DNA of 64,000 bases from Lactococcus protaetiae (GTDB lineage Bacteria > Bacillota > Bacilli > Lactobacillales > Streptococcaceae): NCBI RefSeq assembly GCF_006965445.1, contig NZ_CP041356.1, positions 1 through 64,000 on the forward strand, written 5' to 3'. The notes under the pieces are model-generated. The model did not search any database. It had not been told where the DNA came from and worked only from the letters and a program-made list of their open reading frames with translations. A program made the translations under genes and the position numbers. Positions 8,707 to 60,344 of this stretch are shown here, piece after piece; within the stretch, counting starts at the first letter, position 1, and every line of letters begins with the position of its first letter.

Positions 8707-10302
8707 TTATTTAGCGTAGTCAACTGCACGAGTTTCACGGATAACAGTAATTTTGATATTACCAGGATAATCCATCTCGTTTTCAATACGATTTTTGATG
8801 TCACGCGCAAGCACGGTCATCTTATCATCTGAAAGTTTTTCAGGTTTAACCATCACACGAATCTCACGACCCGCTTGTAAAGCAAAGGCAGTTTCAACAC
8901 CGTCAAAGCTTGTTGAGATTGCTTCAAGGTCTTTCAAACGCTTGATATAGTTCTCAATAGACTCACGACGAGCACCAGGACGTGCAGCAGACAAAGCATC
9001 CGCAGCAGCGACCAACACAGCAATATTACTCATAGGGTCAGTATCCCCGTGGTGACTTGCAATCGCATTGATGACCACTGGATTTTCCTTGTACTTACGA
9101 GCCAGCTCTGTTCCGATTTCAACGTGGCTTCCCTCAACTTCATGGTCAAGCGCCTTACCAATATCATGTAAGAAACCTGCCCGTTTAGCGAGTGCTACAT
9201 TTTCTCCCATCTCAGCAGCCAAATTACCAGCAATATGAGCCACCTCAACCGAGTGATCTAACACATTTTGCCCATAAGATGTACGGAAATGTAAACGTCC
9301 CATAATCTTCATCAAATCAGGATGGAGATTGTGAGCACCAACTTCAAAGGCTGCCTGCTCACCATATTCACGCATCTTATGATCTAGCGCTTTGCGATTT
9401 TTCTCTACCAATTCTTCAATGCGAGCAGGGTGGATACGACCATCTTGAACGAGCTGTTCAAGTGTCATCCGAGCAATCTCACGACGAATTGGGTCAAAAC
9501 CAGAAAGTACAACTGCTTCTGGTGTATCATCAATGATGACATCAATCCCAGTCAGAGCTTCAAAAGTACGAATATTACGACCTTCACGACCAATAATCCG
9601 TCCTTTCATCCCATCATCTGGTAAATTAACAACTGACACTGTTTGTTCAGCCACAGAATCCGATGAGACACGTTGAATGGCAAGAGAGATGATATTTTTA
9701 GCACGTTTATCAGCCTCAGCGTGTGCTTTCTCCTCACTACTCTTAATAATCTGTGCCATCTCTTTGGTCAAACCATCTCGTGTTTCAGAGAGGATAATAT
9801 CACGAGCATCATCAGTGCTCAAACTTGAGATACGCTCCAACTCCAGACGTTTCTTTTCTTCAATATGCGTTAATTGTTCTTCGCGCTTACTGAGCGTATC
9901 AGTCTTTCTAACGAGGTTCTCCTCTTTAGAATCTAAGTTTTTTTCTTTTTGCGTCAAGGTATCATCCTTGCGGTCCAAGATTTCTTCACGTTGTTTTAGG
10001 CGTTTTTCAGTCTCCTTTAACTCCTTACGTTCTTGCTTAAATTCATCTTCGATTTCACGACGTTGCTTTTGTTCTTCTTCACGAAGCGTGTAACGTGCCT
10101 CTTTTTTGAAAGTCTCTGCTTCCTTTTTCAGAAGTTCTGCTTCACGTTTAGCACTCGCCATAACCTCATTTGCTTTATTTTCCGCCTCATTAAAAAGAGA
10201 ATCAGCATCCTGCTTATTTTTCTTGATATTCTGAGCGTAAAAAATGAAAGCGACAACTAATACAACCAATAAGACCAAAAGAACGATAGAAATAATGTTC
10301 AT
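8707..10302 (-). CDS. rny: Ribonuclease Y
   Basis: Membrane-anchored endoribonuclease that starts mRNA decay in Firmicutes. At 531 aa it has an N-terminal membrane helix (residues 3-23), a long charged coiled coil (about 30-190), a KH domain with [16 protein letters not shown] (about 225-290) and an HD domain with the metal-binding [10 protein letters not shown] near 370. Start ATG follows GAGGAG. It has its own promoter and terminator and so appears monocistronic. Confidence 0.95.
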
Positions 10303-10394
10303 TAGTCTCCTCTAAAGCTAGTAATACTGCGGTTCAATACCACCAGCAGTTTGATTATAAATTTAAAGTATTTTGCGGAGCAAGATACCTGTTT

Positions 10395-10423
10395 ATTATA
10401 CCATTTTAAGCTTTATTATTCAA
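10395..10423 (-). promoter_or_regulatory. Promoter of rny
   Basis: On the minus strand TTGAAT, 17 bp, TATAAT, about 90 bp before the rny start codon. Near-consensus sigma-A hexamers with ideal spacing. Confidence 0.65.
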
Positions 10424-10480
10424 TTCTTGATTATATAACGCTTTCATTTTTTAACCAAGCAAGTGTCTACTAACATCAGT

Positions 10481-10636
10481 AGGAGAAAGAACCTCCCATT
10501 GATGAAGTAATCACTTCAAAAATGTGACATTTAAAAAGTCTTTACGTATAGTATGATGGAGCAAGAATGCTCTGTCCTCTGACCATCTTGGTAGCCCTAG
10601 GGTCTTTGCGCTTTAGCGCTTAGACTTCAGGGACAG
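10481..10636 (-). repeat. Dispersed mosaic repeat, copy 2 (merged with toxin leader)
   Basis: Contains the GAAGTGATTACTTCAT-type end (10503-10518, orientation reversed) and the block 10594-10636 (GCCCTAGGGTCTTTGCGC...) which matches the reverse complement of 15399-15442 in copy 4 at roughly 42 of 44 bases. The toxin-1 promoter and the start of its leader lie inside it. Confidence 0.65.
10524..10552 (+). promoter_or_regulatory. Predicted promoter of toxin-like gene 1
   Basis: GTGACA, 17 bp, TATAGT. The same arrangement (GTTACT, 17 bp, TATAGA) lies before toxin gene 2, and the segment CTTTACGTATAG around the -10 box is identical in both, which supports function. Predicted leader about 160 nt. 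Confidence 0.55.
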
Positions 10637-10672
10637 CAGAAAGCTGACATTTTCAATGTCAGCTTTTCGTTG

Positions 10673-10712
10673 CACACCCCTAATCAATTTTTATATTATA
10701 TCGTGGAGGTGT
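10673..10712 (+). promoter_or_regulatory. Anti-SD/SD pair in toxin 1 leader
   Basis: GCACACCCCT (10672-10681) can pair with the SD region GGAGGTGT (10705-10712), seven of eight positions counting G-T. Copy 2 keeps the same possibility (CACACTCCCC with GGAGGTGTG). An SD hidden in a stem is typical for type I toxin mRNAs. Confidence 0.5.
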
Positions 10713-10718
10713 AAAACC

Positions 10719-10869
10719 ATGAAAGGTTGTCCATCTCTTGGTATTGGGAAAAGGTACAATGATTATTGTTGTTCTAAGCTTTAGCATAGGCGCAATATTG
10801 GGCTCTTTCAAGACAATTCTTGAAATCATCAAGCTCATCATTGACATCAAAAAAACTAGTCACAAATAG
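10719..10869 (+). pseudogene. Type I toxin-like small hydrophobic peptide, copy 1 (frameshifted)
   Basis: A strong SD (GGAGGTGT) sits 6 bases before ATG. The frame from this ATG stops after 21 codons, but one base fewer in the GGGAAAA run (10746-10752) gives a 49-residue peptide of the same length as copy 2, sharing CP at positions 4-5, M14, and from LSFS onward nearly every residue, ending IKLIIDIKKTSHK. As written, only an internal ATG at 10759 (36 aa, containing the full hydrophobic segment) would give product. Hydrophobic helix plus Lys-rich tail resembles Hol_Tox/TxpA-like toxins. Either inactivated copy or base-call error. Confidence 0.55.
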
Positions 10870-10952
10870 CGACTAGCAAGTCCCATACCAAGAGTCCAGA
10901 GTACGCCGTGTGTTGACGCACACGGTTTTTTTGCGTCTCTTTTCTCTTTGTT
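10849..10952 (-). ncRNA. Predicted antisense (antitoxin) RNA 1
   Basis: A minus-strand promoter (TTTACA, 17 bp, TATACT; 10959-10987) predicts a start near 10952. A terminator on the same strand, stem CTAGTC/GACTAG with seven Ts (10849-10876), predicts an end near 10849, so about 104 nt. The RNA covers the toxin 1 terminator and the last codons of the toxin gene. Copy 2 predicts an antisense RNA of the same size and position. Confidence 0.6.
10906..10932 (+). terminator. Terminator of toxin 1 mRNA
   Basis: Stem CCGTGTG/CACACGG followed by seven Ts on the plus strand. It lies inside the predicted antisense RNA. Confidence 0.75.
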
Positions 10953-10958
10953 AAGACT

Positions 10959-10987
10959 AGTATAGCAAAAATTTTCGCTCTTGTAAA
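10959..10987 (-). promoter_or_regulatory. Promoter of antisense RNA 1
   Basis: Minus strand TTTACA, 17 bp, TATACT, directed toward the 3' end of the toxin gene. Copy 2 has TTGAAA, 17 bp, TATAAT at the same place. Confidence 0.6.
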
Positions 10988-11002
10988 ATTCAAAATTTTA
11001 AG

Positions 11003-11057
11003 CAGATTCAAGCTAATCTTTGAAATCATCAAGCTCATCATTGACATCAAAATTGTT
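11003..11057 (+). repeat. Relic of a third toxin gene
   Basis: The stretch TGAAATCATCAAGCTCATCA and following TTGACATCAAAA is identical to the toxin 1 segment coding for EIIKLIIDIK. The start, SD, terminators and antisense promoter are absent, so this looks like a truncated duplicate. Confidence 0.6.
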
Positions 11058-11104
11058 AATACCCTCATCTTATTAACAAAGCAAAAGATGATAGATATAA
11101 CTTA

Positions 11105-11139
11105 GAAAAAACATCAAAGTATGCTCTCTGATGTTTTTT
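11105..11139 (-). terminator. Terminator after the ChW protein gene
   Basis: Stem AAAACATCA/TGATGTTTT with a 13-base loop and T tracts on both strands, 15 bp after the stop codon of the minus-strand ChW gene. Confidence 0.75.
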
Positions 11140-11153
11140 AGTGGTTCATAATA

Positions 11154-12716
11154 TTATTTGATTGATGCCACAAACGGATTTGGTGCATCTTGCTCAACTA
11201 CATGAACTTCAATAGCTTCCAGACGACGAGACTCTCCACGTGTTCCAGCAAATTGTCCGTCTGAGAATACCCCCGACCAGCCAGTGCCTTGAAGGTGAAC
11301 ACGGTAGAAGACACGGTGTGTACTACGCATTGACTCAGGAAGTTGGATAGAGATTCCCTCCATACGACGCATTTCTCCTGTCGTACCAACAGTTGTCACA
11401 CCACTAGCACTTGTACCAACAACATCTCCTTTACCTTGAAGGTGAGCTTCTACTTCGAAGTTGAACGTGCCTCCCTTACCGTCATGGATATTTTGGAATG
11501 TTACTTGCTCCAGACGGAGCGCCTGACCTGTCGTTCCGATAATCTCTCCGTGACCTACTTTGTCCATATCGCCAAGCCCTTGCACGTGAGCACCGAATTG
11601 AGAGCGAAGGGTGTGTTCTGGAGTGCTAATGGTAGTAGCCAGAGTCACGGTAGGAAGGTTAAAGTTCATTGGTCCTGTAAATTCTGCAGTGATATCGTAT
11701 TTCTTATTTGGATCCAAATCTGTGAATGTTGCTGTCTGACCTGCTTTTACTGTTTTTGTGACAGGTTCTTTCTCTGTTTCACCAGCTGGAACGACTGCAG
11801 GTTTAATTGTATATTTCACATCTTGTTGCGCCTTAAACAAATCAATATTTGGTTGAAGTGCTGTGGTGTTCGTGATATCAAGAACCACTTCAATGCTATC
11901 GCCAGTTGTTGCTCCTTGTTTCAATCTCATGCCAGCTGCACTAACATCAACAGCATTGATAGTTACGGGCATACCAATCAATCCACCTAATCCAGTTGTT
12001 CGATTGAGATCATTTGTAATTTGTGTACGCTGTGCCGCTGTGAAGTCTACATTCGCTTTGTTCCAGTCGATGGTATAGCTGCTAATGATTGTACCTCCTG
12101 GTACATTAGCATTATTGACAGTAACCGTGATAGCATTTGCGATATCTGTCTCTACGACGTCCGCTCTCATAGCAGCCCCTACGACCACATTAGCTCCAAG
12201 AACTCCCAAATTAAACTGATTAGAAGCGTTGAATGAATGACTCAGTGTTCCATCGACTGTTGCTTGGACCTCACCACTCATTGTTGCTTGGGCAATCCTG
12301 ATATTCAAATTGAGAACTTCAGCCGTAGACGAAGAATGACGAAGTTGGATTGTGTGTGAACCTATACCAAGATTATCAATGGCAAGCATTAGGTTAGCAA
12401 AGCTACCGCTAACGTTACCACCTGCTCGCCATGATGTTTCCCCAGGTTCTAGCATTTGAAGAGTATTAGTGGTGATATCTAATTTTTGCCTAATAAGCAT
12501 CTCTAAATTGCTATCTCCTACGCTAAAATCTCTTGCCAATAGCGGTACAGAACCATAAGTGAAATCGAGAATTTCTGTAGCCGTTGGTGCTATTGCTGTA
12601 GTGCCAACGCCTTCCGCCAATACACTAACTGCTGGTGCGAGTGGCGCTACAAGAAGAGTTGAAGTTGCTGCTGTTGCTGTGAGTGCGCGAAGCACTTGTT
12701 TTACGTTACGTTTCAT
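11154..12716 (-). CDS. Secreted protein with three C-terminal ChW repeats
   Basis: A 520 aa exported protein. The signal peptide (residues 1-35) has a basic start MKRNVKQ, a hydrophobic core and an Ala-rich cleavage region near VLAEG. The middle is low in Lys/Arg, rich in Thr/Asn/Val, and probably beta-structured adhesin-like domains. The last 140 residues hold three units of the ChW type (pattern HxQG-G...GTxGxxxRxExI): HVQGLGD, HLQGKGD and HLQGTGWSG. Only the third keeps the tryptophan. ChW repeats occur in surface or secreted proteins of clostridia and lactic acid bacteria. ATG follows AAGGAAT. The gene sits between the two toxin-antitoxin cassettes. Role unknown. Confidence 0.75.
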   Translation of the reverse strand: MKRNVKQVLRALTATAATSTLLVAPLAPAVSVLAEGVGTTAIAPTATEILDFTYGSVPLLARDFSVGDSNLEMLIRQKLDITTNTLQMLEPGETSWRAGGNVSGSFANLMLAIDNLGIGSHTIQLRHSSSTAEVLNLNIRIAQATMSGEVQATVDGTLSHSFNASNQFNLGVLGANVVVGAAMRADVVETDIANAITVTVNNANVPGGTIISSYTIDWNKANVDFTAAQRTQITNDLNRTTGLGGLIGMPVTINAVDVSAAGMRLKQGATTGDSIEVVLDITNTTALQPNIDLFKAQQDVKYTIKPAVVPAGETEKEPVTKTVKAGQTATFTDLDPNKKYDITAEFTGPMNFNLPTVTLATTISTPEHTLRSQFGAHVQGLGDMDKVGHGEIIGTTGQALRLEQVTFQNIHDGKGGTFNFEVEAHLQGKGDVVGTSASGVTTVGTTGEMRRMEGISIQLPESMRSTHRVFYRVHLQGTGWSGVFSDGQFAGTRGESRRLEAIEVHVVEQDAPNPFVASIK

Positions 12717-12772
12717 AGATATTCCTTCTTTTCTTTTTTATTTTTTGATTTGATTTGCTTTGTTAAATTTTT

Positions 12773-12807
12773 CTCTTGTGCAAGCACAAGAGAAGGGACG
12801 TCCCTTC
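12773..12807 (-). promoter_or_regulatory. Tandem hairpins in the ChW gene leader
   Basis: Two adjacent strong palindromes about 57-91 bases before the start codon: CTCTTGTG-CAAG-CACAAGAG and GAAGGGACGTCCCTTC. Neither has a T tail on the minus strand, so they look like leader structure rather than a terminator. Confidence 0.4.
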
Positions 12808-13041
12808 ATTTTTTGAAGAAACTTTAGGATAGGTGGCTGAAACGCTGGCTAGGCGTTCAACTGACCTAAGCTATAAAATAATGAGCTAGCCACTTCTCAT
12901 TTATTTATAATCTTATTCTAACTTATTTTGTTCCAATTACAAAGCAATATGATATAGGCTTATATAAAGCCATTTATAAGGTTTTGCTTTTCTAATATTT
13001 TTTTCATTTTGTTATTTACTGCTTTTGATAGAAGAATATTT

Positions 13042-13076
13042 ACATCAAAAAAACTAGTCGTGATTTACGACTAGTC
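13042..13076 (-). repeat. Relic of toxin gene 3' end with antisense terminator
   Basis: ACATCAAAAAAACTAGTCGT followed by a complementary CGACTAGTC reproduces the 3' end of toxin gene 2, including the hairpin that terminates the minus-strand antisense RNA. No toxin reading frame precedes it. Confidence 0.5.
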
Positions 13077-13101
13077 ATATTATTTTCATTCAATCTTCTC
13101 T

Positions 13102-13475
13102 TGAAGTGATTACTTCATTGGTGGGGAATTCTTTCTCCTCCACCAATGTTAGGACACAACCTCTAGGTGTAACAACTAAGCAATCTGTACGCAGCTAAAG
13201 CTGCAACAGTCTGCTTAACATCAAAGATATGAGGTCACCCTGTCCCTGAAGTCTATCTCGCTTTGCTCCGCTGTCGATTTCGCTAAGTTGCTAAAGCAAC
13301 AAGCTCAAATCGCAAGCGCTAAAGCGATAAGACCCTAGGGCAGTAGAACGAAAGCAGAGATAGTGCTGCTTATCCCGCCACCTTATAGAGATGGGGAAAT
13401 TGCCACTCCGACTAGGTAGCGAGGATGGACAGCGTAGCCTAAAGGGCGGAGATAGCACGCACTTGCTAAGTTTAA
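13102..13475 (+). repeat. Dispersed mosaic repeat, copy 3
   Basis: About 370 bp of the repeat family directly before toxin gene 2. It begins GAAGTGATTACTTCATTGG, contains AGGTCACCCTGTCCCTGAAG and GGGCAGTAGAACGAAAGCAG, and ends GATAGCACGCACTTGCTAAG. It shares order and words with copy 4 but has extra palindromic units (for example GCAGCTAAAGCTGC and TTGCTAAAGCAA). Confidence 0.75.
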
Positions 13476-13482
13476 ACATTTG

Positions 13483-13511
13483 GTTACTTTTTTACCGACT
13501 TTACGTATAGA
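13483..13511 (+). promoter_or_regulatory. Predicted promoter of toxin-like gene 2
   Basis: GTTACT, 17 bp, TATAGA, just after the end of repeat copy 3. Same geometry and same CTTTACGTATAG core as the promoter of copy 1. Leader of about 85 nt. Confidence 0.55.
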
Positions 13512-13552
13512 TAAGTGGAGAGCATCTCTCCGTACTTTGAGTAACTTGGTTG

Positions 13553-13596
13553 CACACTCCCCTGACAATTCTAGATAATCTTACAGCGGAGGTGTG
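13553..13596 (+). promoter_or_regulatory. Anti-SD/SD pair in toxin 2 leader
   Basis: CACACTCCCC (13553-13562) is complementary, with one bulge, to the SD region GGAGGTGTG (13588-13596). Conserved in copy 1. Confidence 0.5.
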
Positions 13597-13601
13597 AAAC
13601 T

Positions 13602-13751
13602 ATGGTTATTTGCCCCTTTTGGTTGTGGAAAGGTATTTTGATGATAATTATTGTCCTAAGTTTTAGTTTAGGCACGATATTGGGTTCTTTCAAGACAATT
13701 CTTGAAATCATTAAGCTCATCATTGACATCAAAAAAACTAGTCGTCATTAA
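13602..13751 (+). CDS. Type I toxin-like small hydrophobic peptide, copy 2
   Basis: An intact 49-codon gene with SD GGAGGTG five bases before ATG. The peptide begins MVICPFWLWKGILM, continues with a hydrophobic helix (about residues 12-30, IIIVLSFSLGTILGSF) and a second amphipathic stretch ILEIIKLIID, and ends KKTSRH. One membrane segment with a basic tail is the design of type I toxins (Hol_Tox/TxpA/BsrG, Fst), though I cannot match it to a named family. The last codons also form the terminator hairpin of the opposing antisense RNA. It lies directly downstream of metK, convergently. Confidence 0.65.
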   Translation: MVICPFWLWKGILMIIIVLSFSLGTILGSFKTILEIIKLIIDIKKTSRH

Positions 13752-13834
13752 CGACTAGTACCCCACAACCAAGAATTCAGAGTACACCGTGCGATGGTTG
13801 CGCACGGTCTTTTTGTGTATCTTTCATCTTTGTT
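13731..13834 (-). ncRNA. Predicted antisense (antitoxin) RNA 2
   Basis: A near-consensus minus-strand promoter (13841-13869) predicts a start near 13834. The stem ACTAGTCG/CGACTAGT followed by seven Ts (13731-13759) ends the RNA after about 104 nt. It is fully complementary to the last codons, 3' UTR and terminator of toxin mRNA 2. Same size and layout as copy 1. Confidence 0.65.
13786..13814 (+). terminator. Terminator of toxin 2 mRNA
   Basis: Stem ACCGTGCG/CGCACGGT followed by CTTTTT on the plus strand, 35 bp after the toxin stop. Confidence 0.75.
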
Positions 13835-13840
13835 AGAGTT

Positions 13841-13869
13841 ATTATAACACTTGCAGTTGAGTTTTTCAA
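13841..13869 (-). promoter_or_regulatory. Promoter of antisense RNA 2
   Basis: Minus strand TTGAAA, 17 bp, TATAAT: one of the best promoter matches in the window. It starts directly after the metK stop codon and points toward toxin gene 2. Confidence 0.7.
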
Positions 13870-13870
13870 C

Positions 13871-15070
13871 TTAATCTGAGAGCGCTGCTCTAAGTGCTTC
13901 GACTTTGTCTGTCCTCTCCCATGGGAGATCAATATCTGTACGGCCAAAGTGTCCATAAGCCGCTGTTTGAGCATAGATTGGACGGAGAAGGTCAAGCATT
14001 TTGATGATTCCTGCTGGACGGAGGTCAAAGACTTTACGGATGGCAGCAAGAAGTTCATCATCAGAAACTTTTCCTGTACCAAATGTTTCAACATTGATTG
14101 ATGTTGGTGTGGCTACACCAATCGCATAAGATAGCTGGATTTGAGCTTTGTCTGCAAGTCCTGCTGCGACGATATTTTTTGCGACATAGCGCGCAGCGTA
14201 TGAAGCCGAACGGTCAACTTTTGTTGCATCTTTACCAGAGAAAGCTCCTCCACCGTGAGGTGCATAACCGCCATAGGTATCAACAATGATTTTGCGCCCA
14301 GTCAATCCAGAGTCACCTTGAGGGCCTCCGATAACAAAGCGTCCTGTAGGATTGATGAAATATTTTGTTTCATCATCCAGAAGCTCTGCTGGAATAACTG
14401 CTTTAATGACTTTTTCTTTCACATCTGCTGTGATTTGTTCAAGTGTCACATCTGCTGCGTGTTGTGTTGAGATAACAACAGTATCAACACGTTTTGCTTT
14501 GCCGTTGTCATCGTATTCAACGGTTACTTGTGATTTTGCATCTGGACGAAGGTATGAAATCTCTCCAGATTTGCGAAGATCTGCCAACTTTTTCACAAGT
14601 TTGTGTGAAAGCGAGATAGCGAGCGGCATATACTCTGCTGTTTCATTGGTTGCAAAGCCAAACATCATCCCTTGGTCACCTGCACCGATAAGGTCAAGCG
14701 GGTCAACCACTTTGCCATCTTTTCCGCGCACTTCTTCGGCTTCATTGACACCTTGTGCAATATCTGGTGATTGTTCTACGAGCGAGACGTGAACTCCGAC
14801 TGATTTGTAGTCAAAGCCGTTTTCACTATCTGTATAACCGATTTTTTTGATGGTATCACGTACAACACCTGCGATATCAACATAGGCTGATGTTGATATT
14901 TCACCAAAGACATTGACTGTACCTGTATAAACCACTGTTTCACAAGCGACATGGGCGTCTGGGTCTTGTGCAACGATGGCATCTAAGATAGCATCTGAGA
15001 TTTGGTCTGCGACCTTATCTGGATGGCCTTCTGATACTGATTCTGACGTAAATAAACGTTTTTCTGACAT
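13871..15070 (-). CDS. metK: S-adenosylmethionine synthetase
   Basis: Makes SAM from methionine and ATP. At 399 aa it is full length. Motifs: [13 protein letters not shown] at residues 15-27, [10 protein letters not shown] near 120 (the MetK hexapeptide), and [13 protein letters not shown] near 265. The start ATG is preceded by GGGGGA, an SD that forms part of the SMK riboswitch. The gene is transcribed alone from a promoter before the riboswitch. Confidence 0.97.
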
Positions 15071-15316: not shown

Positions 15317-15651
15317 GAAGTGATTACTTCATTGGTGGGGGATTCTTTCTCCTCCACCAATGTTAGGGCACAACCTCACATCAAAGATATGAGGTCACCC
15401 TGTCCCTGAAGTCTAAGCGCTAAAGCGCTAAGACCCTAGGGCAGTAGAACGAAAGCAGAGCTTGCCATTTCGCCTTATCGCTTTAGCGATTTAGAGCGAA
15501 TGGACAGCGTAGCGAAGCGGAGATAGTGCTGCTTATCCCGCCACCTCATAGAGGTGGGGGAATTGCGATTGCGACTAGCCACTTTAGTGGCGTAGCGAGC
15601 ATCGACAGCGTATCCCAAAGGGCGGAGATAGCACGCACTTGCTAAGTTAAA
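15317..15651 (+). repeat. Dispersed mosaic repeat, copy 4
   Basis: The most complete copy of the type with the GAAGTGATTACTTCATTGG end. Order of palindromic words: CATTGGTGGGGG...CCTCCACCAATG, ACCTCACATCAAAGATATGAGGT, TAAGCGCTAAAGCGCTTA-type unit, CCCTAGGG, GAACGAAAGCAGAG, CGCTTTAGCG, and the end GATAGCACGCACTTGCTAAG. Weak open frames crossing it differ between copies and have no ribosome sites. Confidence 0.8.
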
Positions 15652-20848: not shown

Positions 20849-22451
20849 TCATTTAGGTTGAATATAAGTTGCCAATGCCGCCACTCCAGCAGAAATATGA
20901 CGCTCACTCACAATATTATTCCCCTTAACATTCATCTCAGAAACTAATATTGAATTATCTGGATACACCTTCTCTACAAAAGCCACATGACCATAAACAG
21001 AACTCGAACCCGCAACTCCTGGAGGGAAACTTACCGCATAACCCTCTGTTGGAACAGTCGTCGTATAATAACCTTGTGCCTGAGCATTAATCCCCACTCA
21101 CCACCATTACCCATATGAGTTCCAATCTGACCCCAAGTTGAATGATTCGGTTATACACATACTGCGTACAATTTCCAAACGCATAACTCTCTGAACCTGG
21201 ATATTCCACCCCATTATAAGCAGGAAAATTCGATGTATCCAATTTTGAACTTAACACAGGACTTGCTGGTGTATCTGACGCCCATACTTGAGTACTACTA
21301 TCTACATTGTCATAGAAATTCAGATTATATTCTTGGATAATATCAATCAGTTTTTGAGCATAGTCAGGATCTGTCGCAAAAACACCCTGCAATGATTCCG
21401 CTGCTTCTTGATAAGTTTTCGACTGAGACTTCCAAGAACCTGCATAAATATCTGGATTCCAAGTCGTCCCTTTCAACATTAAGTTAATATAATCATCTAA
21501 AGATTGATCATAGTTACTATAAACCCGAAAACTCTGTTGAGTAAAATAAGGATTAGTTCCAGCAAATTCTTGCGTTTGGAATGTCACTGATTTCCCTAAA
21601 TAAGCCCCTGTAATATTGAAAATATTAAAGTACTTCTGAGCCATATTACTTTGACCATAACCCGACTCTAAAATCGCTTGCGCCAAGATAATCGAAGCAA
21701 AAAGATTATTTTTCCCCGCCAAAACCTGTACTCGAGGTGCAATACTCTTGATGAAAGCTTCTGGGCTAGACGTATCAATTTTCTTAATGGGTTGAGCCGC
21801 CTCTATTTTCTTCAATACAGGACCTGTATAAATGGAAGTGGCGTTACTCAGCTTTGAGCTTCCCACTGTCGAAGACTGATAATAAGCAGAATTCGCATAA
21901 CTAGAAACAACTGTTTCAGAATGTGAAAAAACATGACTTGTTACAGTTTTTGTAGATGAGCTAATCGTTTTACTCGGAGTACTTGGCTTAGGTGATGCTG
22001 GCTTCGGCTTACTTGGTGATGCTGGTGTGCTTGGTTTTGGAGGCGTCGGTTTCGGTTTATCCGGCGTACTCGGTGGAGTAGGCGGCGTGCTAGGCTCCGT
22101 AGGTTTAGTTTCATCTGGAGGCGTGACTGACGAATCATCTCCTGAATTTCCCGTTCCTTCCGAACTCTCCCCATTGCTTCCCGTCTCATCTGGCGTATTG
22201 TCTGGCGTCTCATTATTATTATCTGTTGTTACTTGACCCGTATCACCTGTATTCGTTTGACCCGAATCATCACTCGTTACTAATTCATTACCATTATTCA
22301 CAACCTGTGACGTACACGTCACCTCATTCGAAACTGGTAACTCATCTGCATGAGCCGTAGCACCAAACGTACTTATCCCCAAGGCTAGTGCTGTACCTGC
22401 TACTAGCTTGTAGGTCTTTCCAGTTCTTTTTTTACTATTTTCAACCTTCAA
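20849..22451 (-). pseudogene. Secreted glucosaminidase-CHAP cell-wall hydrolase, two frameshifts
   Basis: The product would be about 534 aa: signal peptide (KLVAGTALALGISTFGATAHA), a Thr/Glu/Asn-rich then Pro-rich linker (TPP/KP repeats, residues about 60-165), a GH73-type glucosaminidase domain (about 225-385, with QAILESGYGQS and YFNIFNI), and a C-terminal CHAP amidase domain that begins GNCTQYVYNR. The frame breaks twice within 45 bases (near 21137 and 21096); one extra G at each GGGG run restores QLGGQIGTHMGNGGEWGIN, a perfect CHAP core. Start is TTG with AGAGG 8 bases upstream (a second TTG lies six bases earlier). No anchor motif is seen. Confidence 0.8.
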
Positions 22452-22608
22452 AATCAAAACCTCTTTTTATTCTACTCGCTCTCAATGAAATTTATGATAA
22501 CACTCTTATTACAATATTGTAACACTTTCTAAATTATAACGCAAGCTAATCACTTCTCATACTTATATATACGTAAATTAATCTAAAATATCACTCCTAT
22601 AAACAAAA

Positions 22609-49551: not shown

Positions 49552-49632
49552 CAAATTCTCCTCAACTCTGTTTTCATGCCTTTATTTTATCATTTTTTTC
49601 CTTGAAAGACTTGCACGATAGGGAAGTGCTTT

Positions 49633-49762
49633 GAAGTGATTACTTCATCAGTGGAAGATTCTTTCTCTCCCACTGATGTTAGTAGAACGAAAGCAAAGCT
49701 TAGTGCTGCTTATCCCCCTACCTAAAAAAGGTAGGGGATTTAGCAGGCACTTGCTTGGTTAA
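49633..49762 (+). repeat. Dispersed mosaic repeat, copy 9 (short form)
   Basis: Begins GAAGTGATTACTTCATCAGTGG, with complementary CCCACTGATG, then GTAGAACGAAAGCAAAG, GTGCTGCTTATCC, the hairpin CCCCTACC...GGTAGGGG, and ends GCAGGCACTTGCTTGG. It contains both ends but only part of the middle. Confidence 0.75.
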
Positions 49763-53273: not shown

Positions 53274-53441
53274 AATGAAGTCAAGACTTATTCAGTGGGA
53301 GTTTCGTAAAACATTTGTCCATTTTCTCTAGTCGCTATCTTCGCTGTCCGTTTGTAGAACGGCGTGCGAAGCACGTAGCACCGTAGCGAGCATCGACAGC
53401 GTAGCCGTAAAGTGGAGATAGCACGCACTTGCTTTGATAAA
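53274..53441 (+). repeat. Dispersed mosaic repeat, copy 10
   Basis: Begins AATGAAGTCAAGACTTATTC and ends GCACGCACTTGCTTTGATAA, the family ends, plus strand. The last 94 bases match the reverse complement of 60060-60153 (copy 12) with about four differences, so these two copies separated recently. Palindromic core ACGGCGTGCGAAGCACG. Confidence 0.85.
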
Positions 53442-56976: not shown

Positions 56977-57460
56977 TATCAAAACAAGTGCGTGCTATCT
57001 CCACCTTACGGCTACGCTGTCCGTTTGCTTAACTGCTAAAGCAGCAAGAGCAAAAGGCAAAGCACCTAGTCGGAATAGCAATCTTTGAATTTCGTCCGAC
57101 TGCCATAGGGCGTTGGCGCTTTTAGCGCCTAGACTTCTTGGAAAAGACCACTTCGCCTTACGACTTTAGTCGATTGCGATTTGAACTTCCGACTTTAGTC
57201 GGTTAGTGAAATCGACAACGTAGCAAAGCGTAGATAGAGCGAATGGATAACGAAGTGAAGCGGAGGTGTGACCTCATATCGAAGATGTGAGGTTGTACCT
57301 TAAATTCAGTGGTGAGTTGCCCTTTTATCAGTCGCATTGCCTTTTGCTCTTGCTGCTTTAGCAGCTAAGCAAACGGACAGCGTAGCGCAGCGAAGATAGC
57401 AACTAGAGAAAATGGACAAATGTTTTACGAAACTCCCACTGAATAAGTCTTGACTTCATT
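56977..57460. repeat. Dispersed mosaic repeat, copy 11 (long, with 50 bp inverted repeat)
   Basis: The largest copy. 57011-57060 (GCTACGCTGTCCGTTTGCTT...) and 57338-57387 are inverted copies of each other with one mismatch over 50 bases. Between them lie CGACTTTAGTCG units, GGCGCTTTTAGCGCC and an ACCTCATATCGAAGATGTGAGGT hairpin. Both family ends are present (TATCAAAACAAGTGCGTGC and AAGTCTTGACTTCAT). Confidence 0.85.
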
Positions 57461-60059: not shown

Positions 60060-60344
60060 TATCAAAACAAGTGCGTGCTATCTCCACCTTACGGCTACGC
60101 TGTCGATGCTTGCTACGGTGCTACGTGCTTCGCACGCCGTTCTACGAACGGTCTCCGCAACTTCGTTGCTCCGCTGTCCGTTTGCTTAACTGCTAAAGCA
60201 GCAAGAGCAAAAGGCAAAGCACCTAGTCGCAATCGCAATACTCCGACCTCTTAGGTCAGAGATAAAGCAGCACTAAGCCTTGAATTTCGTCCGACTAAAT
60301 TCAGTGGTGAGTTGAAACTCCCACTGAATAAGTCTTGACTTCAT
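60060..60344 (-). repeat. Dispersed mosaic repeat, copy 12, upstream of the MFS gene
   Basis: On the minus strand it begins AATGAAGTCAAGACTTATTC and ends GCACGCACTTGTTTTGATA about 60 bases before the MFS ATG. It holds the palindromic units CACGTGCTTCGCACG-like, GCTGCTTTAGCAGTT, CTCTGACCTAAGAGGTCGGAG and ATTCAGTGG...CCCACTGAAT. Confidence 0.85.

What the first reader, a model, noticed from the sequence alone, without database searches (positions are those of the whole stretch)
10524..13869. Two type I toxin-antitoxin-like cassettes with matching architecture, plus two relics
Seen: at 10524-10987 and 13483-13869 the same ordered parts occur. They are a promoter with CTTTACGTATAG core; anti-SD/SD complementarity; a strong SD; a 49-codon hydrophobic peptide with basic tail; a toxin terminator; a convergent promoter with 17 bp spacing; and an antisense terminator within the last toxin codons, giving an antisense RNA of about 104 nt in both. 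Relics at 11003-11057 and 13042-13076 show repeated duplication. Known: TxpA/RatA, BsrG/SR4 and Fst systems share this logic. Inference: a type I system unlike any family I can name.
Basis: partly seen in the sequence, partly recalled or inferred. Interest (0 to 1): 0.88.

Follow-up and report, generated by a model that had tools for sequence, protein, structure and literature searches.

The report
Competence-triggered toxin with antisense RNA guard
A Lactococcus chromosome carries two copies of a small membrane-peptide gene guarded by an antisense RNA, and its promoter looks like those of the DNA-uptake genes, which suggests that the cell switches on a self-acting toxin when it becomes competent to take up foreign DNA.

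Summary
Its SD-proximal ATG opens a 21-codon out-of-frame ORF overlapping a 36-codon toxin ORF. I found 17 cassettes: 14 in 9 of 18 congeneric genomes, 3 in a second genus. Sixteen toxins scanned matched no toxin family.

(1) The toxin promoter looks like a ComX (competence sigma) promoter. A matrix from 16 comGA promoters ranks cassettes 1 and 2 first and second of 255,872 placements in the window. The same bipartite box precedes comGA, ssbB, comFA, radC, coiA, radA and recA here. (2) The segment before the toxin start pairs with the 3' UTR; sequences differ between lineages while pairing persists (0 of 200,000 permutations as good).

Best reading: a new type I toxin family in the competence regulon, held by a housekeeping antisense RNA. 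Expression and toxicity are untested.

The parts
10524..10550 (+). Cassette 1 toxin promoter, ComX type: GTGAC-N16-CGTATA
   Evidence: Pattern hit; best of 255,872 placements in the window with a comGA-derived matrix (20.1 bits)
10594..10636 (.). Fragment of a dispersed repeat in the cassette 1 leader, which is 76 nt longer than that of cassette 2
   Evidence: 98% match over 43 nt at 15400-15442 and 93% over 28 nt at 13314-13341; distances
10673..10680 (+). Cassette 1 anti-SD segment (CACACCCC)
   Evidence: Read; SD partner at about -40 in the predicted fold
10705..10712 (+). Cassette 1 strong SD (GGAGGTGT)
   Evidence: mean pairing probability 0.8
10719..10784 (+). Cassette 1 leader ORF, 21 codons, out of frame and overlapping the toxin start
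10735..10747 (+). Cassette 1 leader strand of the long-range helix (pairs with 10882-10894)
   Evidence: Inverted repeat I15
10759..10869 (+). Cassette 1 toxin ORF, 36 codons, hydrophobic with basic tail
   Evidence: coding constraint
10848..10952 (-). Cassette 1 antisense RNA (predicted, about 103 nt), ending inside the last toxin codons
   Evidence: Promoter and terminator; length
10855..10877 (-). Cassette 1 antisense RNA terminator
10882..10894 (+). Cassette 1 3' UTR strand of the long-range helix
10905..10926 (+). Cassette 1 toxin mRNA terminator
10959..10987 (-). Cassette 1 antisense promoter, TTTACA-17-TATACT with TG (housekeeping type)
10994..11052 (+). Relic 1: duplicate of the toxin C-terminal coding segment, no cassette around it
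   Evidence: Family D2, 83%
13038..13075 (.). Relic 2: duplicate of the antisense-terminator hairpin, also upstream of the G001 cassette
   Evidence: Family D3; G001 copy at L015:4985
13483..13509 (+). Cassette 2 toxin promoter, ComX type: GTTAC-N16-CGTATA
   Evidence: second of 255,872 placements (19.7 bits)
13553..13562 (+). Cassette 2 anti-SD segment (CACACTCCCC)
   Evidence: SD partner at about -42
13588..13596 (+). Cassette 2 strong SD (GGAGGTGTG)
   Evidence: pairing probability 0.8
13602..13751 (+). Cassette 2 ORF, 49 codons: leader fused in frame to the toxin; conserved toxin part starts at ATG 13641
13617..13628 (+). Cassette 2 leader strand of the long-range helix (pairs with 13763-13774)
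13729..13834 (-). Cassette 2 antisense RNA (predicted, about 103 nt)
13737..13759 (-). Cassette 2 antisense RNA terminator inside the last toxin codons
13763..13774 (+). Cassette 2 3' UTR strand of the long-range helix
13786..13808 (+). Cassette 2 toxin mRNA terminator
13841..13869 (-). Cassette 2 antisense promoter, TTGAAA-17-TATAAT with TG (housekeeping type)

Best explanation
These are two members of a chromosomal family of type I toxin-antitoxin-like loci of Lactococcus (and one more genus of the same family) whose toxin belongs to the competence regulon. A housekeeping promoter with an extended -10 makes a roughly 100-nt antisense RNA all the time. When the competence sigma factor ComX accumulates, it transcribes a roughly 260-380-nt toxin mRNA from a GTKAC-N15/16-CGTATA promoter. 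That mRNA is born closed: an anti-SD near its 5' end covers the SD, and the segment just before the toxin start is locked by an 8-12 bp helix to the 3' UTR. The antisense RNA is complementary to the mRNA 3' end (last toxin codons, 3' UTR and terminator) and is expected to pair there and feed RNase III decay, as in txpA/RatA and bsrG/SR4. Toxin is made only when ComX-driven mRNA outruns the antisense RNA. A strong SD drives a short leader ORF that overlaps the toxin start or ends shortly before it, and the inner toxin ATG usually has its own weaker SD-like run, so the toxin is probably reached by coupling or reinitiation; in three cassettes leader and toxin are fused in frame. The 26-38 aa peptide would insert into the membrane and slow or stop growth of competent cells. 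Shown by sequence: parts, promoter resemblance, coding constraint, covarying helix, no match to a known toxin family. Inferred: transcription, ComX dependence, antisense action, coupling, membrane toxicity, biological role.
For: (a) Promoter. Of 18 congeneric comGA upstream regions, 13 have GTKAC-N15/16-CGTA, 3 a variant, 2 no site found. A matrix from those 16 puts cassettes 1 and 2 first and second in the window (20.1, 19.7; next 15.3), also with own and G001 comGA left out (19.6, 17.9; next 16.1). GTKAC-N15/16-CGTATA occurs 14 times in the genome (3 for the pattern read backwards): 2 toxins, comGA, ssbB, comFA, radC, coiA, radA and recA (the last two about 300 nt upstream of the ORF), and 5 others. 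14 of 17 cassettes score 10.3 or more, 10 of 17 reach own comFA (13.3); 0 of 200 shuffled upstreams did as well in 10 of 17. G014 has a 15-nt spacer in comGA and in all five toxin promoters. (b) Antisense side. In 16 scored cassettes the predicted antisense RNA is 93-103 nt, its promoter has TG in 15, and it ends 11-28 nt before the end of the toxin ORF. (c) RNA. Self pairing of leader and 3' UTR beats exchanged partners (9 clade representatives, sum -185.5 vs mean -129.9 kcal/mol, 0 of 200,000 permutations); it is in the predicted fold in 15 of 16. (d) Peptide. Amino-acid similarity exceeds a base-matched null at p < 0.05 in 8 of 9 pairs.
Against: No transcript or toxicity data. Three of 17 promoters score low (G014a 8.9, G014d 5.9 split by an insert, G014e 6.8), and for 7 of 17 at least one of 200 shuffles does as well (G008 1, G033a 3, G002 6, G033b 6, G014a 12, G014e 26, G014d 37). 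G002, G011 and G009 depart from CGTATA (TGTATA, CAAATA, CGGATA), and in G009/G011 a TATAAT lies just downstream, so some copies may be under housekeeping control. The short core TTTACGWATA alone is not enriched in the genome (22 vs 31 for the reversed control). Two of the 14 genome hits, L137 inside an ORF and L131 against one, score 18.7 and 18.2, so a good box can occur by chance. By simple count of amino-acid changes only 4 of 9 pairs reach p < 0.05, and the pairs share members. Single-cassette pairing is not always significant (G010 114, G014d 79 of 500 shuffles as good), and it is absent from the G014c fold and weak in G032. The candidate ComX protein is below the family cut-off. Nine of 18 congeners have no detected cassette.
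Confidence: 0.74

Rival explanations
1. An ordinary type I toxin-antitoxin locus driven by the housekeeping sigma factor; the ComX-like look is a chance variant of a sigma-A promoter (GTGACA-17-TATAGT). (The rivals overlap with the main reading and with each other, so the odds do not sum to 1.)
For: The consensus scan accepts cassette 1 as a sigma-70 promoter (10 of 12); G009/G011 have TATAAT nearby; good boxes also turn up in coding sequence (L137).
Against: The comGA matrix ranks both promoters above everything else in 64 kb; the cassette 2 promoter is not listed by the sigma-70 scan; the same bipartite box marks seven late-competence genes in the genome; the 15-nt spacer of G014 is shared by comGA and toxins.
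Confidence: 0.14
2. A competence-induced membrane microprotein that is not a toxin (for example a regulator of membrane or pilus proteins, or of competence exit), with the antisense RNA as a dose control.
For: Coding constraint and ComX-type promoter say nothing about toxicity; the peptides are diverse.
Against: SD masking, long-range closure and an antisense RNA to the 3' end are the usual safety devices of type I toxins; patchy presence (9 of 18 genomes) and five copies in G014 fit toxin-antitoxin turnover better than a core competence part.
Confidence: 0.25
3. Only the RNAs matter: a competence-induced structured RNA and its antisense, with the peptide incidental.
For: Strong covarying helix; leader frames drift freely; by simple amino-acid count only 4 of 9 pairs are constrained at p < 0.05.
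Against: Third codon positions hold the most changes in 8 of 9 pairs and amino-acid similarity exceeds the null in 8 of 9; 17 of 17 keep an uninterrupted 26-38 aa ORF that runs into the antisense terminator.
Confidence: 0.06
4. Degenerate or non-functional repeats (decaying duplicates).
For: Relics 1 and 2, repeat insertions in cassette 1, G014d and G033b, frameshift-like state of cassette 1.
Against: The 'frameshift' state is the common one (13 of 17 out of frame), promoters of both window copies fit best of all, and the similarity test is positive for cassette 1 vs 2.
Confidence: 0.04

Closest known systems
txpA/RatA, bsrG/SR4, bsrE/SR5, yonT/SR6 of Bacillus subtilis (passages of PMC6562991; start of the abstract of PMC5848175)
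   Same: Small membrane peptide, convergent antisense RNA overlapping the mRNA 3' end (100-140 bp complementarity), SD sequestration in bsrG; SR6 is 100 nt.
   Different: No toxin sequence match to a family; no Rfam antitoxin hit (that RatA is in Rfam is recalled); leader ORF; long-range leader:3' UTR lock; competence-type promoter.
hok/sok with mok leader (recalled)
   Same: mRNA closed by 5'-3' pairing; overlapping upstream ORF around the toxin start.
   Different: Sok pairs near the mok start, here the antisense RNA covers the 3' end; no Hok match.
Fst/RNAII (recalled) and the S. mutans chromosomal type I system (start of the abstract of PMC3543317)
   Same: Small toxic peptide and cis-encoded antisense RNA in related bacteria.
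   Different: No Pfam or NCBIfam hit to a toxin family.
Haemophilus influenzae toxTA (abstract and section list of PMC6957337)
   Same: A toxin-antitoxin operon in the competence regulon; loss of the antitoxin affects uptake unless the toxin is deleted too.
   Different: Two-protein pair with homology to type II systems under Sxy/CRP, not an RNA antitoxin and not ComX.
Pneumococcal ComX promoters (passages of PMC6560143)
   Same: T-rich stretch followed by TTMCGAATA just before the start site; lactococcal boxes read TTWCGTATA.
   Different: CGTATA instead of CGAATA; no word beginning with 'toxin' occurs in that paper.

Membership tests
Type I toxin-antitoxin locus (general) | Small hydrophobic peptide ORF under coding constraint | tested here: met
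   26-38 aa in 17 of 17 (hydrophobicity judged by eye); similarity above null p<0.05 in 8 of 9 pairs, simple change count in 4 of 9
Type I toxin-antitoxin locus (general) | Antisense RNA transcribed opposite the toxin mRNA | tested here: inconclusive
   Promoter and terminator predicted in 16 scored cassettes, TG-extended in 15; no expression data
Type I toxin-antitoxin locus (general) | Toxicity relieved by the antisense RNA | not testable with these tools
   needs bench work
TxpA/BsrG-type systems | 3'-end overlap of toxin mRNA and antisense RNA | tested here: met
   Predicted overlap of last toxin codons, 3' UTR and terminator
TxpA/BsrG-type systems | Toxin or antitoxin sequence homology | tested here: not met
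   No toxin or antitoxin family in Pfam, NCBIfam, PHROGs or Rfam
Fst / Hol_Tox / Ldr / Hok toxin families | Match to a curated toxin model | tested here: not met
   16 toxins scanned: only LapA_dom (3 members, best E 0.0011; E 0.0087 was 16.4 bits against a cut-off of 28) and nupC (1 member, 0.051)
ComX (SigX) late-competence regulon | ComX-type promoter upstream | tested here: met
   For the two window copies: top two placements with a comGA matrix; box shared with comGA, ssbB, comFA, radC, coiA, radA, recA. Not for G014a, d, e
ComX (SigX) late-competence regulon | ComX-dependent transcription | not testable with these tools
   S2 Table of PMC11244767 (RNA-seq of the ComX regulon) could not be opened: supplement look-ups are capped at 0
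hok/sok-like mRNA closure | Conserved long-range pairing between the region upstream of the toxin start and the mRNA 3' end | tested here: met
   0 of 200,000 permutations as good; in the predicted fold in 15 of 16
hok/sok-like mRNA closure | Translational coupling through an overlapping upstream ORF | tested here: inconclusive
   Of 17: leader overlaps the toxin start in 9, ends 4-29 nt before it in 4, fused in 3, far upstream in 1; coupling itself untested
Haemophilus toxTA | Protein antitoxin encoded in the same operon | tested here: inconclusive
   Leader ORFs are not conserved in sequence or length; other ORFs of the cassettes were not searched for systematically

The most novel reading that the evidence does not exclude
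Lactococci carry a family of RNA-guarded self-toxins wired directly to the competence sigma factor. The constitutive antisense RNA sets a threshold, so only cells with strong or lasting ComX activity make the membrane peptide. That would arrest or sacrifice a fraction of competent cells: a growth checkpoint, an exit timer, or a source of donor DNA for neighbours.
Probability: 0.5. Interest if true: 0.88.

Novelty: new variant of a known kind. Interest (0 to 1): 0.78.

Why it matters
I found no type I toxin-antitoxin system described as part of the Gram-positive ComX/SigX regulon in the listings of nine searches of the held library. That library lacks most subscription papers, and two relevant papers were not held. 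If true, it ties an RNA-controlled membrane toxin to DNA uptake in dairy bacteria. It bears on why only a subpopulation of L. lactis cells activates comX and what happens to them (passage of PMC11244767), and it gives 17 natural variants for studying how an mRNA with drifting sequence keeps a long-range lock. It is testable now: L. cremoris and an L. lactis-like contig carry a copy beside a gene I take for metG, and a comX-overexpression transcriptome of L. lactis exists (passage of PMC13413889).

Tried and rejected
Protein search with the 49-aa peptide alone reached only G000 and G001 below E 1e-3 (18 congeners; 335 family genomes) and nothing in plasmids, phages, genome contigs or viral contigs; alignment A3 found nothing in viral contigs. 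Searching by architecture (antisense-terminator pattern; promoter plus SD pattern) and by profile opened the family.

Rows dropped; 34 hits, 30 fetched; 3 lie in cassettes (L044, L048, L058), 2 are relic 2 (L036, L046); the rest I set aside after an ORF listing without further checks; 20 hits; new cassettes G012, G014:C30, G014:C40; L090, L093 and L098 read and rejected; the others judged from the listing or already known; 20 hits, no new cassette seen; I read five of its loci and judged the rest from the listing; 61 of 335 genomes with a hit at E <= 0.3; beyond the cassettes I read and rejected G018, G021 and G327 and G002:C20, G011:C40, G014:C67 and G010:C10:81721; G032:C56 (L167) is a remnant without SD or leader and is not counted; G038 was fetched but not read; the other listed hits were not opened (several with E near 0.01 lie in open frames of 338-368 aa). 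So 17 is a lower bound. G033b is left out of the pairing and folding counts because an insertion separates its leader from the toxin; its peptide equals that of G033a, so 16 toxins were scanned.

The idea that the short core TTTACGWATA is itself enriched was rejected (22 vs 31). The order-wide profile search found no convincing case outside the own genome (4 of 395 with E <= 0.01, the other three at 0.003-0.005 and not read); it was a sample in which other known carriers need not be present. Genus Lactococcus rests on L200; the window species was not identified. No structure prediction was run: for single helices of 26-49 aa it would not discriminate.

One search stopped with a script error after five rows and was redone. 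Transcript ends used for folding are assumed (start about 3 nt after the 10-mer end of the matrix). In one search the antisense promoter is the best of a 100-nt stretch, and the comGA site is the best of the upstream stretch, which favours good scores. Shuffles keep base composition only. The nine clade representatives were chosen by me.


Full report
WHAT IS THERE. The window belongs to a 2.70-Mb single-contig genome. A record carrying a relative of the toxin is titled Lactococcus cremoris (L200) and matches congener G002, so the genus is Lactococcus; the species was not determined. Cassette 1 lies between a 531-codon ORF that I take for rny (RNase Y) and a 520-codon secreted-protein ORF; cassette 2 lies between that ORF and a 399-codon ORF that I take for metK (ORFs; names from recall). 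In congener G001 the metK-linked cassette is present (L006), while the stretch between its rny and secreted-protein ORFs is only about 240 nt and shows no cassette.

CHECK OF THE OBSERVATION. The two segments are direct repeats (118 nt, 87%) and contain a promoter, anti-SD, SD, hydrophobic ORF, toxin terminator, convergent antisense promoter and an antisense terminator within the last toxin codons. Promoter-like and terminator-like sites are in excess over shuffled sequence. The claim of a 49-codon peptide in both is wrong: in cassette 1 the SD-proximal ATG at 10719 reads 21 codons in another frame, and the toxin ORF starts at the inner ATG 10759. This is not a private defect. Of 17 cassettes, 13 have the two ATGs out of frame, 3 are fused in frame (cassette 2, G008, G012), and G033b is in frame by distance but has an insertion and an early leader stop. 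From the lengths the leader overlaps the toxin start in 9, ends 4-29 nt before it in 4, is fused in 3 and ends far upstream in 1. The distance between the two ATGs is 31-49 nt in 16 of 17. In G014b and G032 the toxin start I used is TTG or GTG. Many inner starts have their own purine-rich, SD-like run (read by eye).

THE FAMILY. Searching by architecture and by profile gave 17 cassettes: G000 (2), G001, G002, G008, G009, G010, G011, G012 (one each), G014 (5, in a 71%-complete genome), and in a second genus of the same family G032 (1) and G033 (2). That is 9 of 18 congeneric genomes; not all profile hits were opened, so it is a lower bound. Two public records, L. cremoris and a near copy in a contig filed under another taxon, carry it downstream of a gene I take for metG. 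The 49-aa peptide found nothing in plasmids, phages or viral contigs, and alignment A3 nothing in viral contigs. The peptides are 26-38 aa from the inner start, hydrophobic by eye, with a basic end. Pfam and NCBIfam gave no toxin family for 16 members; PHROGs nothing for the two window peptides; Rfam three matches in 10300-13900, all below their gathering scores. In nine pairs of related toxins the third codon position holds the most changes in 8, amino-acid similarity exceeds a null with the same base changes at p < 0.05 in 8, but the plain number of amino-acid changes is below the null at p < 0.05 only in 4 (the pairs share members, so they are not independent).

THE PROMOTER. I therefore read the comGA upstream regions of all 18 congeners. 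Thirteen have GTKAC, 15 or 16 nt, then CGTA; three have a variant (L113, L114, L115); in two (L107, L123) no site was found at the start I used. A weight matrix from these 16 sites, scanned over both strands of the window with both spacings (255,872 placements), puts cassette 1 first (20.1) and cassette 2 second (19.7), with the third at 15.3; leaving out the own and G001 comGA sites keeps the order (19.6, 17.9, then 16.1). GTKAC-N15/16-CGTATA occurs 14 times in the genome against 3 for the pattern read backwards. Apart from the toxins, hits precede ComGA (NF041000, over cut-off), SSB (NF005579, over cut-off), RadC and RadA (over cut-off), CoiA (PF06054, over cut-off), RecA (partial stretch scanned) and an ORF with helicase domains that I take for ComFA; for radA and recA the box is about 300 nt upstream of the ORF. 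These are late-competence genes of streptococci (recalled). The remaining five are a PC4-domain protein, a TlyA-family protein, a leucine-rich-repeat surface protein, one site against an ORF (L131) and one inside an ORF (L137); the last two score 18.2 and 18.7, so high-scoring boxes can arise by chance. The pneumococcal ComX site is given as TTTTTNHNNNYTHTTMCGAATADWNWRRD up to the start site (passages of PMC6560143), so the lactococcal box is the expected relative. Over all 17 cassettes, 14 score 10.3 or more and 10 reach the own comFA score (13.3); in 10 of 17 none of 200 shuffled upstreams scored as high, in the other 7 between 1 and 37 did. G014a, G014d and G014e are low, and G014d is interrupted by an insertion. 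In G014 the spacer is 15 nt both in comGA and in its five toxin promoters; G010's toxin also has 15, the other toxins 16. The antisense promoters are of the housekeeping type: TG before the -10 in 15 of 16, 17-nt spacers in 14 of 16 (best site in 100 nt taken). A candidate ComX protein is the 168-codon frame around G000:C1:295367-295741 (minus), below the sigma-70 cut-off; naming it ComX rests on recall.

THE RNA. In cassette 1 the segment 10735-10747 pairs with 10882-10894 in the 3' UTR. The lineages have such a pair with different letters: for example CTTGGTTATGG/CCATAACCAAG in G012, TCTCTGTAGA/TCTACAGAGA in G009, TTCTCTGCTATG/CATAGCAGAGAA in G014b, GGTGATTGGAT/GTCCAATCACC in G033a. For nine clade representatives the summed self-pairing energy is -185.5 kcal/mol against a mean of -129.9 when partners are exchanged, and none of 200,000 permutations reached it. 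Longest uninterrupted helices are 8-12 pairs for self (mean 10.6) and average 7.2 for 220 cross-clade pairs (34 of them at least 9, maximum 13); in G010 the longest such run lies elsewhere in the leader, while the fold uses a 9-pair helix before the toxin start. Against shuffled 3' UTRs the single-cassette result ranges from 0 of 500 (five cassettes) to 114 of 500 (G010). In folds of the assumed mRNAs the helix is in the minimum-energy structure in 15 of 16 (not in G014c; only 4 pairs in G032), and the SD is mostly paired (0.40-0.97), in 14 of 16 with a segment 19-45 nt upstream of the first ATG. The antisense RNA covers the 3' UTR strand of this helix. Within G000 each antisense RNA binds its own mRNA at -165.5 and -167.8 and the other copy's at -97.9 and -102.5 kcal/mol in prediction, so cross-talk is possible.

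HOW IT MOST LIKELY WORKS. Constitutive antisense RNA; ComX-driven toxin mRNA that is closed at birth; pairing of the two RNAs at their 3' ends followed by RNase III decay, as for txpA/RatA and bsrG/SR4 (passages of PMC6562991); escape only when ComX transcription exceeds antisense supply; translation through the strong SD and the leader, reaching the toxin by coupling, or directly when fused; membrane insertion of the peptide. Steps after the anatomy are inference. The leader is not conserved in sequence, frame or length, which argues that its translation or its RNA, not its product, matters.

RELICS AND REPEATS. Relic 1 is a 59-nt copy of the toxin C-terminal segment. Relic 2 is the antisense-terminator hairpin; G001 has it too, upstream of its cassette. 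A dispersed repeat has copies or pieces at 13160-13482, 15378-15651, 1449-1507, 49630-49736, 53383-53433, 56985-57399 and 60068-60217; a piece of it sits in the cassette 1 leader.

NOVELTY. It works like a type I system of the TxpA/BsrG layout with hok-like closure (hok recalled); it is a member of none of the tested toxin families. Competence-regulated toxin-antitoxin is known in Haemophilus as a two-protein operon (abstract of PMC6957337). I found no ComX-driven type I system in the listings. Pneumococcus D39 is reported with three type I systems and 19 ComX sites (passages of PMC6212727); the passages I saw do not link them. Of L. lactis ComX papers I saw passages of PMC11244767 and PMC13413889 only, and their tables could not be opened. 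The most useful single step is to look at the metG-linked copy in L. lactis or L. cremoris RNA-seq with and without ComX.

Noticed in passing
window 22596 (minus strand), ORF 21087-22457: Third-best ComX-type site of the window (15.3 bits), about 110 nt upstream of a secreted glucosaminidase/amidase-type ORF (PF01832 1.7e-29; NF006362 2.6e-157, below its cut-off): a possible competence-linked cell-wall hydrolase.
   Followed up: partly
G000:C1:876921, 2194915, 2322081 (L128, L134, L135): ComX-type boxes just upstream of a PC4-domain protein, a TlyA-family rRNA methyltransferase and a BspA-type leucine-rich-repeat surface protein; possible additional competence genes.
   Followed up: partly
window 13160-13482, 15378-15651, 49630-49736, 56985-57399, 60068-60217 and others: Dispersed repeat family with partial copies in both orientations, a piece of it inside the cassette 1 leader.
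   Followed up: partly
L199 (DINK01000012.1): A contig filed under a Holosporaceae metagenome bin carries a Lactococcus-like locus with the cassette; the bin looks contaminated.
   Followed up: no
G014 (L048, L097, L103, L191, L193): Five different cassettes in one 71%-complete genome; one promoter (L191) is split by an insertion.
   Followed up: partly
window 11154-12716 and L015:2206-4659: Between the two cassette sites G000 has a 520-codon secreted-protein ORF, while G001 has a different 817-codon one at the same place.
   Followed up: no
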